DNA of 64,000 nucleotides, taken from positions 62,001 to 126,000 of the forward strand of contig SVLJ01000001.1 of NCBI GenBank assembly GCA_015067995.1, given 5' to 3'. This DNA is from Oscillospiraceae bacterium (GTDB lineage: Bacteria > Bacillota > Clostridia > Oscillospirales > Oscillospiraceae). The notes beneath the pieces were generated by a model. That model worked only from the letters and a program-made list of their open reading frames with translations. It was not told where the DNA came from and ran no database searches. Within the stretch, counting starts at the first letter, position 1. Every line of letters starts with the position of its first letter. A program made the translations under genes and the position numbers. Of this stretch, positions 27,797 through 40,928 are shown piece by piece.

Positions 27797-28169
27797 ATAA
27801 GATCAGCAGCAATCCGAGCGCGAACAGAAGTTCTTCGTCAGCATCCTCTTTAAAAAGCAGGAACAACAGCAACAGCAGCAAAAGATCGCCGGTATCTACA
27901 TTTTCCAGATGAAAACGATCCAATAGCCGCCGAAGCGTTCCAGAGAAGCTGTCATCACATCTGCTGCCGGATGGCTGGGGTGGCGGCGGAGCTGGCATTT
28001 GCGGAGGCGACTTGATGTGTGATGTGTTTTGGTGCTCCTGTTTTTGCTGTGCCATATCTGGAAAGGCAGGGGGCTTCTCGGATTCTGCTGACGATGTGGG
28101 CGCGGGCGGTTCGGTCTCCGGGATGCGGGTGTAAACGCCGCGGTCGTTGCGAATATAGCGGTTATACAC
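27795..28169 (-). CDS. Unknown protein with Pro-rich middle and leucine-run C-terminus
   Basis: I do not recognise a named family. The 124-residue product begins with a YNRYIRN motif, continues with a Pro/Gln-rich low-complexity stretch (about residues 20-75) and ends in a very hydrophobic segment with seven consecutive leucines (DTGDLLLLLLLFLLFKED, about 97-114) followed by a second hydrophobic patch. The GTG at 28169 with GGGAGG seven bases upstream is the best start, two bases after the previous stop. It is the last gene of a three-gene set of small proteins that resemble adaptor or assembly factors more than enzymes. Confidence 0.7.
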   Translation of the reverse strand: MYNRYIRNDRGVYTRIPETEPPAPTSSAESEKPPAFPDMAQQKQEHQNTSHIKSPPQMPAPPPPQPSGSRCDDSFSGTLRRLLDRFHLENVDTGDLLLLLLLFLLFKEDADEELLFALGLLLIL

Positions 28170-32205: not shown

Positions 32206-32287
32206 GTTTACCCGTGGCATGGCAATGGCGCTGATCATTATTCTGGTACTGTCGATGCTGTCATCGCTGATTGTACCCTTCCTGTAA
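32198..32287 (+). CDS. 29-residue membrane miniprotein (Prli42/DUF4044-like)
   Basis: This very short frame begins with ATG overlapping the DUF951 stop region. It has GGAGG at 32184-32188 with a nine-base spacer, better than many long genes here. The product has a basic N-terminus (MNKFTRG) and one membrane helix (ALIIILVLSMLSSLIVPFL). The layout and the VLSMLSSL core resemble Prli42/DUF4044 miniproteins of Firmicutes, one of which anchors the Listeria stressosome. No stressosome genes are in the window, so the role is inferred only from resemblance. It ends just before a strong terminator. Confidence 0.7.
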   Translation: MNKFTRGMAMALIIILVLSMLSSLIVPFL

Positions 32288-32311
32288 TGATCCTGTTACC
32301 CCGGCGCATAG

Positions 32312-32348
32312 AAAGAGGACGCTTCCGTTGGGAGGCGTCCTCTTTTTG
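32312..32348 (+). terminator. Terminator after the DUF951/miniprotein unit
   Basis: A 15-bp stem with one wobble pair (32312-32326 with 32331-32345) closes a GTTG loop and ends in TTTTT. Confidence 0.9.
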
Positions 32349-37150: not shown

Positions 37151-37456
37151 ATGGAGATTACAGCCAAAAGCACAGACAGGAATCTGCTCTTGCAGTTTTC
37201 CGGCGAATTGGATCATCATGCTGCCCGGGATACCATTCGGGAAGTGGAACTGGCCATTGATGCGGCTTTGCCGCGAAATCTGGTGTTGGATATGGAGGGT
37301 GTGACGTTTATGGACAGCTCAGGGATCGCAGTAATCCTGCGTGCACACCGACGAATGCAGCATCTGAATGGCAGTATGATGGTCTGTCATGTGCCAAGAC
37401 AGGCAAAACGAGTGCTGGACGCAGCGGGTGTCGGCAGACTGGTCAGAATCCAATGA
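37151..37456 (+). CDS. spoIIAA: Anti-sigma-F factor antagonist SpoIIAA
   Basis: SpoIIAA (101 residues) is the STAS-domain anti-anti-sigma factor that frees sigma-F in the forespore. The phosphorylation serine is in FMDSSGIAVILRAHR near residue 58, and the opening beta strand LLLQFSGELDHHAA is typical. A purine-rich AAGGAAGAAGG site precedes the ATG. It starts the classic spoIIAA-spoIIAB-sigF operon. A sigma-H promoter would be expected between 37063 and 37150, but I could not identify convincing -35 and -10 elements. Confidence 0.96.
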   Translation: MEITAKSTDRNLLLQFSGELDHHAARDTIREVELAIDAALPRNLVLDMEGVTFMDSSGIAVILRAHRRMQHLNGSMMVCHVPRQAKRVLDAAGVGRLVRIQ

Positions 37457-37469
37457 GGGGGAGAGTAGC

Positions 37470-37919
37470 ATGAAACAAAAGATATCCAACTACATAACGC
37501 TGGAATTTCTCAGCCGCAGTACCAATGAAGGGTTTGCCAGAACTGCTGTCGCCTGTTTTGCGGCCCAGATGGATCCTACATTAAATGAACTGGAGGACAT
37601 CAAAACCGCAGTCAGTGAAGCGGTGACCAATGCCATTGTCCATGCATATCCGGTGTCTTTGGGGAAGGTTACGGTAAAAGCTGCTGTCTGTGAAGGAAAT
37701 CTTCTGGAGATTACCGTGAAAGATCGCGGGCGCGGCATACCGGATATCGACAAGGCGCGTCAGCCCATGTATACCACCGGCGGAGAGGAGCGAAGCGGCA
37801 TGGGCTTTACCATTATGGAGAGCTTCATGGATCGGGTATCCGTCCGGTCGGTGCTGGGAAAGGGGACAACTGTTGTTATGCGCAAGAAGTTGGCGGCCAG
37901 ACGTTCTGCGGTAAAATGA
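37470..37919 (+). CDS. spoIIAB: Anti-sigma F factor / serine kinase SpoIIAB
   Basis: SpoIIAB (149 residues) is the GHKL-fold kinase that holds sigma-F inactive and phosphorylates SpoIIAA. ATP-site motifs are the N box EDIKTAVSEAVTNAIVHAYP near residue 40, the G1 box VKDRGRGIPDIDKARQPM near 85, and ERSGMGFTIMESFMD near 113. ATG 37470 follows AGGGGGAGAG. It is 13 bases after spoIIAA and overlaps sigF by four bases (ATGA). Confidence 0.97.
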   Translation: MKQKISNYITLEFLSRSTNEGFARTAVACFAAQMDPTLNELEDIKTAVSEAVTNAIVHAYPVSLGKVTVKAAVCEGNLLEITVKDRGRGIPDIDKARQPMYTTGGEERSGMGFTIMESFMDRVSVRSVLGKGTTVVMRKKLAARRSAVK

Positions 37920-38626
37920 GTACGCAGTCCACAATGGAGCTGCTGCGAGCAGCACAGGAAGGGGACAGCGATGCCTGTGAGCGGGCTGTTCGGGAAAACA
38001 GTGGTCTGATCTGGAGTATTGTACGGCGCTATTATGGCCGGGGTGTGGAACCGGACGATCTTTACCAGCTGGGGTGCCTGGGTTTTTTGAAGGCAGTACA
38101 GGGATTTGACTTCTCCTATGGGACTTGTTTTTCCACGTATGCAGTACCGAAGATCGCTGGAGAGATTCGCCGCTTTCTCCGTGACAATGGAAGCGTTAAA
38201 GTTGGACGCAGCATAAGGGAGAAAGCATATCTGCTTTACAGCGCGAGAGAAAAGCTGCAGCAGATGGAGGGCAAGGAACCGACCCTTTCGGAGCTTGCTG
38301 AACTGACGGGGATGACACCGGAGGAGATCGCTCAGGTGGAGATCGCAACAGATATACCGGAGTCACTGCAGGCGGAGAATGAAGATGGCCTCTCACTGGA
38401 GGGAGTGCTGGGGACAGATGCGCCGGAAGATGCGCTTGTGGAGCGGATTGCTCTGCGGGAGGCTGTTGAGCAACTGCCGGAAAAGGAGAAGATGACGATT
38501 TTGCTCCGTTACTATCGAGGATTTACACAGGCGCAGACGGCGCGGGTGCTTCAGGTGTCTCAGGTGCAGATATCCCGTCTGGAGCGTAAGGGATTGCTTC
38601 GGCTTCGAACGCAGTTTGAGGAATAA
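37916..38626 (+). CDS. sigF: RNA polymerase sporulation sigma factor F
   Basis: Sigma-F (236 residues) starts forespore-specific transcription after septation. Region 2 contains YYGRGVEPDDLYQLGCLGFLKAVQGFD, region 3 GSVKVGRSIREKAYLL, and region 4 LPEKEKMTILLRYYRGFTQAQ with the HTH RVLQVSQVQISRLERKGL. The length and the third-gene position after spoIIAA-AB separate it from sigma-G. The last 104 bases overlap the converging DUF4130 gene, so the transcripts are partly antisense. Confidence 0.96.
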   Translation: MSTQSTMELLRAAQEGDSDACERAVRENSGLIWSIVRRYYGRGVEPDDLYQLGCLGFLKAVQGFDFSYGTCFSTYAVPKIAGEIRRFLRDNGSVKVGRSIREKAYLLYSAREKLQQMEGKEPTLSELAELTGMTPEEIAQVEIATDIPESLQAENEDGLSLEGVLGTDAPEDALVERIALREAVEQLPEKEKMTILLRYYRGFTQAQTARVLQVSQVQISRLERKGLLRLRTQFEE

Positions 38627-39371
38627 ACCAGGATGCACCCTGAAATTCGGTCATGGTGTTCCAGAACCGCTTCGGCATCTGTGTCATACGGCATCGCGGA
38701 TTTTCTCGCTCCTTGATGGCAATCGTATCATAGAAGCGTTTCCAAAGAAGCCGATAGGCGGCTTCCTGTGTGTCCGGCTTTGCCATTTCAAATTGTTCCA
38801 GAGGAGTGATTGCGGATTTGCCGGAGGAATAGAAAAGTACCTCTCGATATGTCCGATCATAGATAAAAAAAGTCTCATTATAGTAACGGGAACAGAAATG
38901 ACTGCGAAGCAGAGGGAGAACGCGGTTTTTCGGTTCAATTTCGCTGCCGAGTACGCCGTTCAGGTCTGAGAAACGCACAAATCCTTTAAGTAGATGTGCT
39001 TCGCCGTTCATGGCACGGATGGCTTTGATAATGGGATAGAGAGTAGGATCGGTCATGCTGCGCAGAAAGCCGGGGCCATCCCTCAAAAGAGTACGAATCA
39101 TCTGGTAGAGATGCATCTCTCGTTGAGGCAAACAGGTCAAAAAACCGCGCCGCAGGATTTGCCCTGCATCCTGTGAAAGAGCAAATACCTTGCGGTAAAC
39201 ACGGTTGGCGTGCTCCTGAACTGTCTGGATATACCGGGTATCGTAAAGAGTGGGTTCAAAGTCCTCATCGCTGACAATAGCGGTGAGGACTTCGTGTTTG
39301 GCATAGCTTTCAAAGACGCAGCAGAGAAAGCCTTCAAAGCTGCCGTCATAGCAATATATCAGAGGCGTCAT
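38523..39371 (-). CDS. TIGR03915/DUF4130 family protein, probable DNA-damage partner of the radical SAM gene
   Basis: The 282-residue product begins YCYDGSFEGFLCCVFESYA and contains YDTRYIQTVQEHANRVYRK, the pattern of the TIGR03915 (DUF4130) family, which is always near a radical-SAM/HhH gene and is predicted to work on DNA. A conserved core runs to MPKRFWNTMTEFQ near residue 242. The last about 35 residues, Pro/Ala-rich, are encoded antisense to the sigF 3' end and look like an accidental extension. It starts 10 bases after the radical SAM gene and belongs to the LexA-box operon. Confidence 0.88.
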   Translation of the reverse strand: MTPLIYCYDGSFEGFLCCVFESYAKHEVLTAIVSDEDFEPTLYDTRYIQTVQEHANRVYRKVFALSQDAGQILRRGFLTCLPQREMHLYQMIRTLLRDGPGFLRSMTDPTLYPIIKAIRAMNGEAHLLKGFVRFSDLNGVLGSEIEPKNRVLPLLRSHFCSRYYNETFFIYDRTYREVLFYSSGKSAITPLEQFEMAKPDTQEAAYRLLWKRFYDTIAIKERENPRCRMTQMPKRFWNTMTEFQGASWFIPQTAFEAEAIPYAPDGISAPETPEAPAPSAPV

Positions 39372-39381
39372 ATACTACCTT

Positions 39382-40650
39382 TCAGACTGCGTGATCGAAA
39401 AGGGACAACTGTTGGAATTGTGGATGCGGCAGGGAAGAACGTTCTGCGGCAATCAGATTCTGCAGCAGGCTGTCCGGAGTAAACCGCAGACCGGGAATGG
39501 TTCTGTGACTGGCGGTGAGAAAATACTGGGCTCGTTTCATCACCACTCCCAGCTTTTTCAGATCGTCTGCATGCAGCGGCCCTATGCGGCGTGCCGCAAG
39601 GATACGCTTGGCGGAAGTTACGCCGATGCCAGGAACGCGCAGCAGTGCTTCGTAATCTGCTGTATTGACTTCCACAGGGAAGAAATCCAGGTGTGCCAAA
39701 GCCCAGCTGCACTTGGGATCTACCAGCGGATTGAAATCGGAATTTTGCTCATCCAGCAGCTCCTCGGCACGAAAACCATAGAAACGCAGCAGCCAGTCGG
39801 CCTGATAGAGCCGATGCTCCCGCAGCAGCGGCGGTTTTACATCCTTTGCCGGAAGAAGTGCGTGTTCCACCACGGGGACATATGCAGAATAAAATACCCG
39901 CTTTAGGCGATATTTGTCATACAGTCCCTGTGTCAGCCGCAGGATGTGAAAGTCGCTGTCCTGTGTGGCGCCTACGATCAGCTGGGTGCTTTGTCCGGCG
40001 GGAGCAAACCGGGGTGTGTGCCGGTATTTGACCAGTTCCTCTTTATTCTGCTGGGTGGCAGTGTCGATTTGACGCATGGGAGTAAGGATTGCCTGTTTGG
40101 TTTTGTCCGGTGCCAGAAGCTTCAGTCCTGCTTCGGACGGAAGTTCAATGTTCACGGACAGGCGATCTGCCAACAGACCCAACTGTTCCACCAGTTCCGG
40201 AGCTGTACCGGGAATGGTTTTGGCGTGGATATAACCGTTGAAGCGGTATTGCTCCCGCAGAAGGCGCAATGTGCGGATCATCAGTTCGGTTGTATAGTCC
40301 GGACTGCGGTATACGCCGGAGGAGAGGAAGAGTCCTTCGATATAATTACGGCGGTAAAACTGGATGGTCAGATCGGCCAGTTCTTCCGGTGAGAACATGG
40401 CGCGCGTGGTCTCGTTGCTGCGCCGGTTCACGCAATACTTGCAGTCGAATACGCAGCGATTGGTCATCAGTACTTTCAGCAGAGTAACGCAGCGGCCGTC
40501 TGCTGAAAATGTGTGACAGCAGCCGGCCAGCGAAGAAGATGTGTTTCCGATATATCCTTGTTTTGAACCGCGACGTGCGCCGCTGGATGTACAGGCAGCA
40601 TCATATTTGGCTGCGTCGGTGAGTACCGTCAGTTTCTCGAGCAGATCCAT
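39382..40650 (-). CDS. Putative DNA modification/repair radical SAM protein with C-terminal helix-hairpin-helix (TIGR03916 type)
   Basis: The 422-residue protein has the radical SAM cluster motif CVFDCKYC (Cys66, Cys70, Cys73) followed by VNRRSNETTRAMFSPEEL, and a C-terminal HhH DNA-binding domain (ALLRVPGIGVTSAKRILAARR, about 338-358). The family is annotated as a putative DNA modification or repair enzyme; no reaction is established. Extra cysteines lie in AGCCHTFSADGRC upstream of the cluster motif. No ribosome site is seen before the ATG, so translation is probably coupled to the 43-residue gene ending seven bases upstream. Expression appears LexA-controlled. Confidence 0.92.
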   Translation of the reverse strand: MDLLEKLTVLTDAAKYDAACTSSGARRGSKQGYIGNTSSSLAGCCHTFSADGRCVTLLKVLMTNRCVFDCKYCVNRRSNETTRAMFSPEELADLTIQFYRRNYIEGLFLSSGVYRSPDYTTELMIRTLRLLREQYRFNGYIHAKTIPGTAPELVEQLGLLADRLSVNIELPSEAGLKLLAPDKTKQAILTPMRQIDTATQQNKEELVKYRHTPRFAPAGQSTQLIVGATQDSDFHILRLTQGLYDKYRLKRVFYSAYVPVVEHALLPAKDVKPPLLREHRLYQADWLLRFYGFRAEELLDEQNSDFNPLVDPKCSWALAHLDFFPVEVNTADYEALLRVPGIGVTSAKRILAARRIGPLHADDLKKLGVVMKRAQYFLTASHRTIPGLRFTPDSLLQNLIAAERSSLPHPQFQQLSLFDHAV

Positions 40651-40656
40651 CGGTCA

Positions 40657-40788
40657 TCAGCGAGCGGCAACTGCCCGGCGACGATTGTGCTGCTTTGCAG
40701 GGCGTTCGATTATATCGATAATCCGAAACAGCTGCGCAGCCAGTGTAGTGATTCCCATAACCGTAAAGAAAAATGCCCAACCTGTCAT
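40657..40788 (-). CDS. 43-residue LexA-controlled membrane miniprotein
   Basis: This short frame is the first gene after the LexA-box promoter. ATG at 40788 has GAGGT seven bases upstream and the stop lies seven bases before the radical SAM start. The product has one hydrophobic helix (WAFFFTVMGITTLAAQLF) directly at the N-terminus, a short acidic turn (IIDIIERP) and a basic tail (HNRRRAVAAR). SOS-induced single-helix proteins such as YneA and SosA delay cell division in other Firmicutes; this one is shorter and not recognisably homologous, so that role is only a hypothesis. It could alternatively be a leader peptide for coupling. Confidence 0.65.
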   Translation of the reverse strand: MTGWAFFFTVMGITTLAAQLFRIIDIIERPAKQHNRRRAVAAR

Positions 40789-40804
40789 ATTGAAAACCTC
40801 CAAT

Positions 40805-40818
40805 CGAACAAATGTCCT
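40805..40818. promoter_or_regulatory. LexA box 1 (one core mismatch)
   Basis: CGAACAAATGTCCT fits GAAC-N4-GTTC with one mismatch and lies just downstream of the predicted start point. Confidence 0.6.
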
Positions 40819-40829
40819 AATATGACTAT

Positions 40830-40858
40830 ACTATAACCCGAACAAGTGTTCTTGTCAA
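40830..40858 (-). promoter_or_regulatory. Promoter of the LexA-controlled operon
   Basis: On the minus strand TTGACA (40853-40858) and TATAGT (40830-40835) are separated by exactly 17 bases. The spacer holds a perfect LexA box, so bound repressor would block polymerase. Confidence 0.88.
40839..40852. promoter_or_regulatory. LexA box 2 (perfect core)
   Basis: CGAACAAGTGTTCT matches the Gram-positive SOS box CGAAC-N4-GTTC exactly and occupies the promoter spacer. Confidence 0.85.
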
Positions 40859-40866
40859 TAGAAAAT

Positions 40867-40880
40867 CGAAAAAATGTTCG
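40867..40880. promoter_or_regulatory. LexA box 3 (one core mismatch)
   Basis: CGAAAAAATGTTCG fits with one mismatch and lies about nine bases upstream of the -35 element. Centre-to-centre distance to box 2 is 28 bases; to box 1 from box 2 it is 34. Confidence 0.55.
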
Positions 40881-40888
40881 ATTTCTTG

Positions 40889-40928
40889 AAAAAAGTCTGC
40901 CGGAAGAACAGTGCGTTCTTCCGGCAGA
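40889..40928 (-). terminator. Terminator after the threonine aldolase gene
   Basis: A perfect 14-bp stem (40896-40909 with 40915-40928) is followed on the minus strand by CTTTTTT. It separates the aldolase transcript from the LexA operon. Confidence 0.9.

What the first reader, a model, noticed from the sequence alone, without database searches (positions are those of the whole stretch)
38523..40880. LexA-controlled operon: 43-residue membrane protein, radical-SAM/HhH enzyme and TIGR03915/DUF4130 partner
Seen: on the minus strand a TTGACA-17-TATAGT promoter (40858-40830) has a perfect LexA box (40839-40852) in its spacer and two one-mismatch boxes on either side (40805-40818, 40867-40880). 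The transcript encodes a 43-residue single-helix protein, a CxxxCxxC radical SAM protein with a C-terminal HhH domain, and its usual DUF4130 companion, with gaps of 6 and 10 bases. Known: the two large families always travel together and are only predicted to act on DNA. Inference: they form an SOS-induced DNA repair or modification system whose reaction is undescribed, with a membrane miniprotein as an extra, possibly checkpoint, component.
Basis: partly seen in the sequence, partly recalled or inferred. Interest (0 to 1): 0.85.

Follow-up and report, generated by a model that had tools for sequence, protein, structure and literature searches.

The report
DNA-damage operon with conserved membrane miniprotein
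In a group of gut bacteria, a DNA-damage-controlled gene set pairs a predicted DNA-repair enzyme with a tiny membrane protein whose relatives sit in virus-like replication modules beside a probable antisense RNA, suggesting that repair is coupled to a growth or division brake.

Summary
Three LexA-type boxes flank and fill the promoter of a three-gene operon: a 43-aa single-helix protein, a TIGR03916 radical-SAM/HhH protein and a TIGR03915/DUF4130 protein. The genome has lexA with its own box. Boxes precede 78 of 80 close radical-SAM relatives (10.5 expected) and 74 of 90 sampled across Clostridia (4.4 expected), so SOS control of the enzyme looks class-wide; it is already in print as a prediction. 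The miniprotein is real (57 of 80 loci, purifying selection) but, as an operon gene, was seen only in two Oscillospiraceae clades. New here: it belongs to a family without a match in Pfam, NCBIfam or PHROGs, with relatives in prophage-like replication modules overlapped by a conserved antisense RNA, the TisB/IstR and DinQ/AgrB layout (the window copy has no such RNA). Also new: in 47 of 57 miniprotein loci the operon ends tail-to-tail inside a sigF-like gene of spoIIA, mostly by 113 bp, with no terminator-like site in 43 examined. Best reading: an SOS repair operon carrying a membrane peptide that slows growth or division. Toxicity, induction and enzyme activity are untested; the enzyme's reaction stays unknown.

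The parts
40896..40928 (-). Intrinsic-terminator-like hairpin (15 pairs) after the upstream gene
40868..40879 (.). LexA-type box, 1 mismatch, upstream of the -35
40830..40858 (-). sigma-70-type promoter TTGACA-17-TATAGT
40840..40851 (.). LexA-type box, perfect GAAC-N4-GTTC, in the promoter spacer
   Evidence: usual box spacing in miniprotein loci 28-29 bp
40806..40817 (.). LexA-type box, 1 mismatch, just past the expected transcription start
40657..40788 (-). 43-aa single-helix miniprotein, type 1 (QLFR-x-I-D-x-IERP motif, basic tail)
39382..40650 (-). TIGR03916 radical-SAM protein with C-terminal helix-hairpin-helix
38523..39371 (-). TIGR03915/DUF4130 protein; its last ca. 35 codons lie antisense to the 3' end of the sigF-like gene
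38523..38626 (.). 104-bp tail-to-tail overlap of the DUF4130 gene and the sigF-like gene (113 bp in most overlapping relatives)
37916..38626 (+). SigF/SigG-like sporulation sigma factor (below the equivalog cut-offs; same gene order as in the annotated Pusillibacter locus)
37389..37919 (+). spoIIAB-like anti-sigma F frame (TIGR01925, 188.9 bits; profile match from residue 34, so the true start is probably near 37488)
37151..37456 (+). spoIIAA-like anti-anti-sigma factor (TIGR00377 over cut-off, TIGR02886 below)

Best explanation
This is a LexA-repressed DNA-damage operon. LexA covers the promoter through the spacer box and two flanking boxes; damage releases it. The transcript makes (1) a membrane-inserted miniprotein, N-out/C-in by its Arg-rich tail, that acts as a brake on growth or division, a works-like counterpart of TisB, DinQ, SidA or YneA, and (2) a radical-SAM/HhH enzyme with its DUF4130 partner, which act on a damaged or modified base in DNA. 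Shown by sequence: boxes, their conservation, selection on the miniprotein, and its kinship with peptides of prophage-like replication modules overlapped by an antisense RNA. Inferred: that the peptide is growth-limiting (a gene kept under LexA in the host and under an antisense RNA in phage-like modules is one whose product must stay low), its topology, and the enzyme's action on DNA.
For: LexA boxes in 78 of 80 close relatives and 74 of 90 across Clostridia; lexA with its own box in the same genome. Miniprotein in 21 of 21 same-genus operons read and 57 of 80 loci; core pN/pS 0.29, codon-position variability 0.175/0.079/0.375. Of 24 other same-genus genomes, the 20 with the radical-SAM gene all have a miniprotein hit and the 4 without it (G003, G009, G010, G019) have none. 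Hydrophobic 17-residue stretch and a tail with median net charge +5 (range 0 to 7, 49 proteins). Kin profile to the non-operon copies at hhalign probability 99.4. 18 of 20 strong hits of the RNA model are followed at once by a miniprotein-family frame (11 of the 20 were in the model's training set, of the other 9, 7; two of the 18 recognised by eye only). In 7 of 12 such loci a long upstream frame overlaps the miniprotein start by 4 bp, so one mRNA probably crosses the RNA. DinQ/AgrB and TisB/IstR are LexA-controlled single-helix peptides with antisense RNAs (PMC3567139, passages).
Against: No antisense RNA at the operon copy: the RNA model's best window hit is 17.2 bits at 32260-32347, far from the operon. 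The radical-SAM gene does without a miniprotein in 23 of 80 close loci, and no miniprotein-family frame was seen in 90 class-wide upstream regions (3 unrelated hydrophobic frames). No toxicity, induction or localisation data. YneA needs its LysM domain, which the miniprotein lacks (PMC13396833, abstract). No family library searched names the peptide.
Confidence: 0.5

Rival explanations
1. The miniprotein is a membrane tether or regulator of the radical-SAM/DUF4130 pair, bringing the repair enzyme to the membrane or the replisome, rather than a brake.
For: First gene of the operon, close to the radical-SAM gene (gap 6 bp here; many relatives overlap it by 22 bp). Copies in prophage-like modules precede a replication initiator and a helicase-like protein, which fits a replication-membrane link.
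Against: The pair occurs without it in 23 of 80 close loci and in the 90 class-wide regions read. The non-operon copies read have no radical-SAM neighbour that I saw.
Confidence: 0.2
2. The small frame is only a leader or translational-coupling device for the radical-SAM gene.
For: Start and stop are spaced so that translation could be coupled; the C-terminus varies and in many relatives runs into the next gene.
Against: Protein-level selection: pN/pS 0.29 in frame (1128 pairs), against 0.89 (28 pairs) and 2.6 (276 pairs) in the other two frames where those were open. The same peptide family occurs at unrelated loci.
Confidence: 0.08
3. The main selected effect of the arrangement is transcriptional: SOS transcription runs antisense into sigF and spoIIAB and holds back sporulation while DNA is damaged.
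For: Overlap of the 3' ends with the sigma gene in 41 of the 48 type-1 loci and 6 of the 7 type-2 loci in which that gene was found. Terminator-like site within 300 nt after either stop codon in 0 of 43 (control stretch before the operon: 20 of 43). A C. difficile lexA mutant sporulates less (PMC4689574, passages).
Against: Terminators are rare inside coding sequence anyway. The overlap is inherited within few clades, so it counts as few events. The fixed 113 bp may follow from conserved sigma-gene codons. 7 of 48 type-1 loci do not overlap. No transcript data.
Confidence: 0.2

Closest known systems
TIGR03916 + TIGR03915/DUF4130 pair (COG4277 and partner)
   Same: Both proteins pass the curated cut-offs; LexA control of CAC3343-CAC3344 in C. 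acetobutylicum and of COG1573-COG4277 in Bacteroidetes already predicted (PMC3828012, PMC8565304, passages)
   Different: Here a conserved miniprotein precedes the pair and the operon ends inside a sigF-like gene; none of 40 relatives has a TIGR03914 (UDG) match over the cut-off
DinQ/AgrB and TisB/IstR-1 of E. coli (SOS peptides with antisense RNA)
   Same: Very short single-helix protein, LexA boxes at the operon copy; non-operon relatives have a divergent ca. 70-nt RNA antisense to their probable mRNA
   Different: Operon copy lacks the RNA and is part of a repair operon; no sequence kinship shown; toxicity unknown
SOS division inhibitors YneA and SidA (SidA recalled)
   Same: SOS-controlled small single-pass membrane proteins
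   Different: No LysM or other extracellular domain; no divisome interaction tested
SplB (spore photoproduct lyase)
   Same: Radical-SAM DNA repair enzyme; a 2013 study links DUF4130 with SplB-like proteins and UDGs (PMC3765255, passages)
   Different: Our protein is in another NCBIfam family, with C-terminal HhH; substrate unknown; no direct comparison with SplB was made

Membership tests
LexA (SOS) regulon, Gram-positive type | GAAC-N4-GTTC-type box at the promoter, conserved in relatives | tested here: met
LexA (SOS) regulon, Gram-positive type | lexA gene in the genome | tested here: met
   TIGR00498, 213.4 bits
LexA (SOS) regulon, Gram-positive type | LexA binding and induction by DNA damage | not testable with these tools
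   needs binding assay and RNA-seq
TIGR03916 radical-SAM protein | Score over curated cut-off, CxxxCxxC, HhH | tested here: met
TIGR03916 radical-SAM protein | Fe-S cluster and SAM chemistry on DNA | not testable with these tools
   no assay
TIGR03915/DUF4130 | Score over curated cut-off | tested here: met
   208.5 bits against 112.25
Type I toxin-antitoxin peptide (TisB/DinQ kind) | Peptide under about 60 aa with one hydrophobic helix | tested here: met
   (hydropathy only)
Type I toxin-antitoxin peptide (TisB/DinQ kind) | Antisense RNA at the locus | tested here: not met
   Operon copy: no match of the RNA model near it, though another kind of RNA is not excluded; met only at non-operon relatives. 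So the window copy is not filed as a type I system
Type I toxin-antitoxin peptide (TisB/DinQ kind) | Peptide toxic when expressed | not testable with these tools
   no assay
YneA-type SOS division inhibitor | Transmembrane helix plus extracellular LysM domain | tested here: not met
   43 aa, no Pfam match; definition from the abstract of PMC13396833
DHH/RecJ superfamily (for DUF4130) | DHH-DHHA1 fold | tested here: inconclusive
DHH/RecJ superfamily (for DUF4130) | DHH motif | tested here: not met
   0 of 31 rows hold DHH

The most novel reading that the evidence does not exclude
A three-armed damage checkpoint. One LexA switch turns on a radical-SAM DNA repair pair, a membrane brake peptide of a new family shared with prophage-like replication modules (where a new antisense RNA guards it, a new type-I-like module), and antisense run-through that silences sigF so that a damaged cell neither divides nor sporulates. 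DUF4130 would be a degenerate RecJ/Cdc45-like fold that presents DNA to the radical-SAM enzyme.
Probability: 0.12. Interest if true: 0.82.

Novelty: new variant of a known kind. Interest (0 to 1): 0.6.

Why it matters
A class-wide SOS-controlled radical-SAM enzyme with no known reaction is a good target for a new DNA repair chemistry. The miniprotein family, without a match in the libraries searched, links host SOS control with prophage-like replication modules and an antisense RNA, so the question of what SOS membrane peptides do can be tested in common gut bacteria. The overlap with spoIIA offers a direct, testable wire between DNA damage and sporulation.
Full report
Observation. The window lies in a 2.3-Mb genome, G000. 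Its radical-SAM protein is nearest to those of Oscillibacter and Dysosmobacter (Oscillospiraceae). The genome has one lexA over the curated cut-off, starting 58 bp after a box CGAACAAATGTTTG.

LexA control. Of 40 relatives (own genome included) 28 carry the radical-SAM gene. All 21 same-genus loci read have boxes with <=1 mismatch in 330 bp upstream; of the 7 more distant ones 2 do. Of the best 80 of 264 confirmed loci in genome contigs, 78 have at least one box in 300 bp upstream (10.5 expected from dinucleotide shuffles), 61 have two or more (0.5 expected) and 44 a perfect one (0.63 expected). Usual spacing between boxes in miniprotein loci is 28-29 bp. Across the class, 118 of 245 genomes matched TIGR03916, 94 over the cut-off. 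I read 90 upstream regions of 250 bp or what the contig allowed, that is the places over the cut-off except the window's own and those in G797, G668, G712 and G581. Of these 74 have a box (4.4 expected), 15 have two or more (0.12 expected) and 12 a perfect one (0.15 expected); GAAC-ATAT-GTTT is common. Relatives are not independent, but the range of families makes one chance inheritance unlikely. SOS control of this family is already predicted in print: CAC3343-CAC3344 of C. acetobutylicum (PMC3828012, passages) and COG1573-COG4277 in Bacteroidetes, with earlier reports cited there (PMC8565304, passages).

Miniprotein. In 21 of 21 same-genus operons a 32-62-aa frame with the motif QLFR-x-(I/V)-D-x-IERP or a near variant stands between boxes and radical-SAM gene. 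In the 80 loci it is present in 57: 50 of type 1 and 7 of a diverged type 2 (the automatic call of L111 was removed and L087 added by hand). The two types align as profiles with probability 96.6. In the radical-SAM tree (quick method) type 1 (51 rows with the window), type 2 (7) and no-miniprotein (23) are three separate groups with SH-aLRT 98, 99 and 85, so gain or loss was rare. In 22 of the 23 without it a box lies 28-44 bp before the radical-SAM start. Over a 27-codon core of 48 type-1 genes pN/pS is 0.29 (1128 non-independent pairs), against 0.10 for a radical-SAM segment and 0.89 and 2.6 in the two other frames, computed on the 28 and 276 pairs open there. RefSeq lists the Pusillibacter copy as a hypothetical protein (WP_256315625.1). 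No family of Pfam or NCBIfam matched P0001, none of PHROGs matched four members, and 20 members gave only two stray NCBIfam matches at E 0.06 and 0.1.

The family beyond the operon. Profile A1 finds the miniprotein in 70 of 86 genus genomes and in 3 of 295 genomes drawn from the order (the own one, G095, and a spurious one); profile A3 in 7 of 200 of the family. Of the 24 other same-genus genomes, the 20 with the radical-SAM gene all have a hit and the 4 without it none. Many genomes have further copies. I fetched 20 further places; one proved to be an operon copy, 19 lie elsewhere. Eleven of the 19, and IMG/VR contig L180, share one layout: the miniprotein (29-43 aa) followed by a frame of 241-282 aa and one of 432-549 aa. 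PHROGs names the first of these a replication initiator in the two loci tested and the gene before the miniprotein an HTH regulator in the one tested; the second I read as a DnaB-like or loader-type helicase. Just upstream, on the other strand, lie a TTGC-TATAAT-type promoter and a ca. 70-nt transcript ending in a G+C-rich hairpin and T-run. Over 12 sequences, 9 of 16 predicted pairs have compensatory changes. A model of this RNA hits 28 of 86 genus genomes at E<=0.001, but many of these are weak; 20 places score 49 bits or more. Of these 20, 18 are followed at once by a miniprotein-family frame, two of them recognised by eye only. Eleven of the 20 were in the training set; of the other 9, 7. 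The two exceptions are a tandem copy before an HTH-like gene and one before an unrelated small frame. In 7 of 12 loci a long upstream frame overlaps the miniprotein start by exactly 4 bp, so one mRNA probably carries both and is complementary to the RNA; in the other 5 no such frame was found. This is the layout of DinQ/AgrB and TisB/IstR-1 (PMC3567139, passages). The other 8 of the 19 copies, including the window genome's own second copy (L129/L165), have no such RNA, nor has the operon copy.

Neighbourhood. The operon runs tail-to-tail into spoIIAA-, spoIIAB- and sigF-like genes. The sigma gene was found convergent near 48 of 50 type-1, 7 of 7 type-2 and 3 of 23 other loci; the 3' ends overlap in 41, 6 and 1 of these, by 113 bp in 38 type-1 loci and 104 bp in the window. 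In 43 overlapping loci no terminator-like site lies within 300 nt after either stop codon; the stretch before the operon has one in 20 of 43 on the same strand. Coding sequence rarely holds such sites, so this is weak support for read-through. A C. difficile lexA mutant filaments and sporulates less (PMC4689574, passages), which makes an SOS-sporulation link plausible.

Mechanism. Most likely: LexA release, then repair by the radical-SAM pair while the membrane peptide slows growth or division. The first step rests on conserved boxes and on printed predictions; the peptide's effect is inferred from its shape and relatives; the enzyme's chemistry is inferred from family domains alone. The antisense effect on sigF is a separate, weaker idea.

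Verdict. Confirmed as seen, already predicted in part, with a new miniprotein family, a new antisense-RNA association and a new overlap with spoIIA added here.

Noticed in passing
L160, L161, L162, L164, L166, L167, L169, L170, L171, L173, L174, L180: Prophage-like module: regulator-like frame, ca. 70-nt antisense RNA, miniprotein, replication initiator, helicase-like protein; the RNA hairpin covaries and has no Rfam match.
   Followed up: partly
window 37151-38626 and 38523-39371: SOS operon overlaps the sigF-like gene of a spoIIA-like operon tail-to-tail; overlap 113 bp in most overlapping relatives.
   Followed up: partly
L129/L165 (G000:C6:124676-124789, minus): Second miniprotein of 33 aa in the window's genome, before what reads like an NhaC-type antiporter gene; no LexA box with <=1 mismatch in 3.1 kb.
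   Followed up: no
L198, L199, L200, L201, L203: DUF4130 gene not beside a radical-SAM gene, following a histidine-kinase-like gene end, no LexA box.
   Followed up: no
L322 (NZ_AP023421.1, 504-kb plasmid pMM59_01): The whole operon with spoIIA neighbours lies on a record typed as a conjugative plasmid of Pusillibacter faecalis.
   Followed up: no
L226: Two copies of the antisense RNA in tandem, the second before an HTH-like gene and without a miniprotein.
   Followed up: no
window 27822-27833: Another perfect GAAC-N4-GTTC site in the window; its context was not examined.
   Followed up: no
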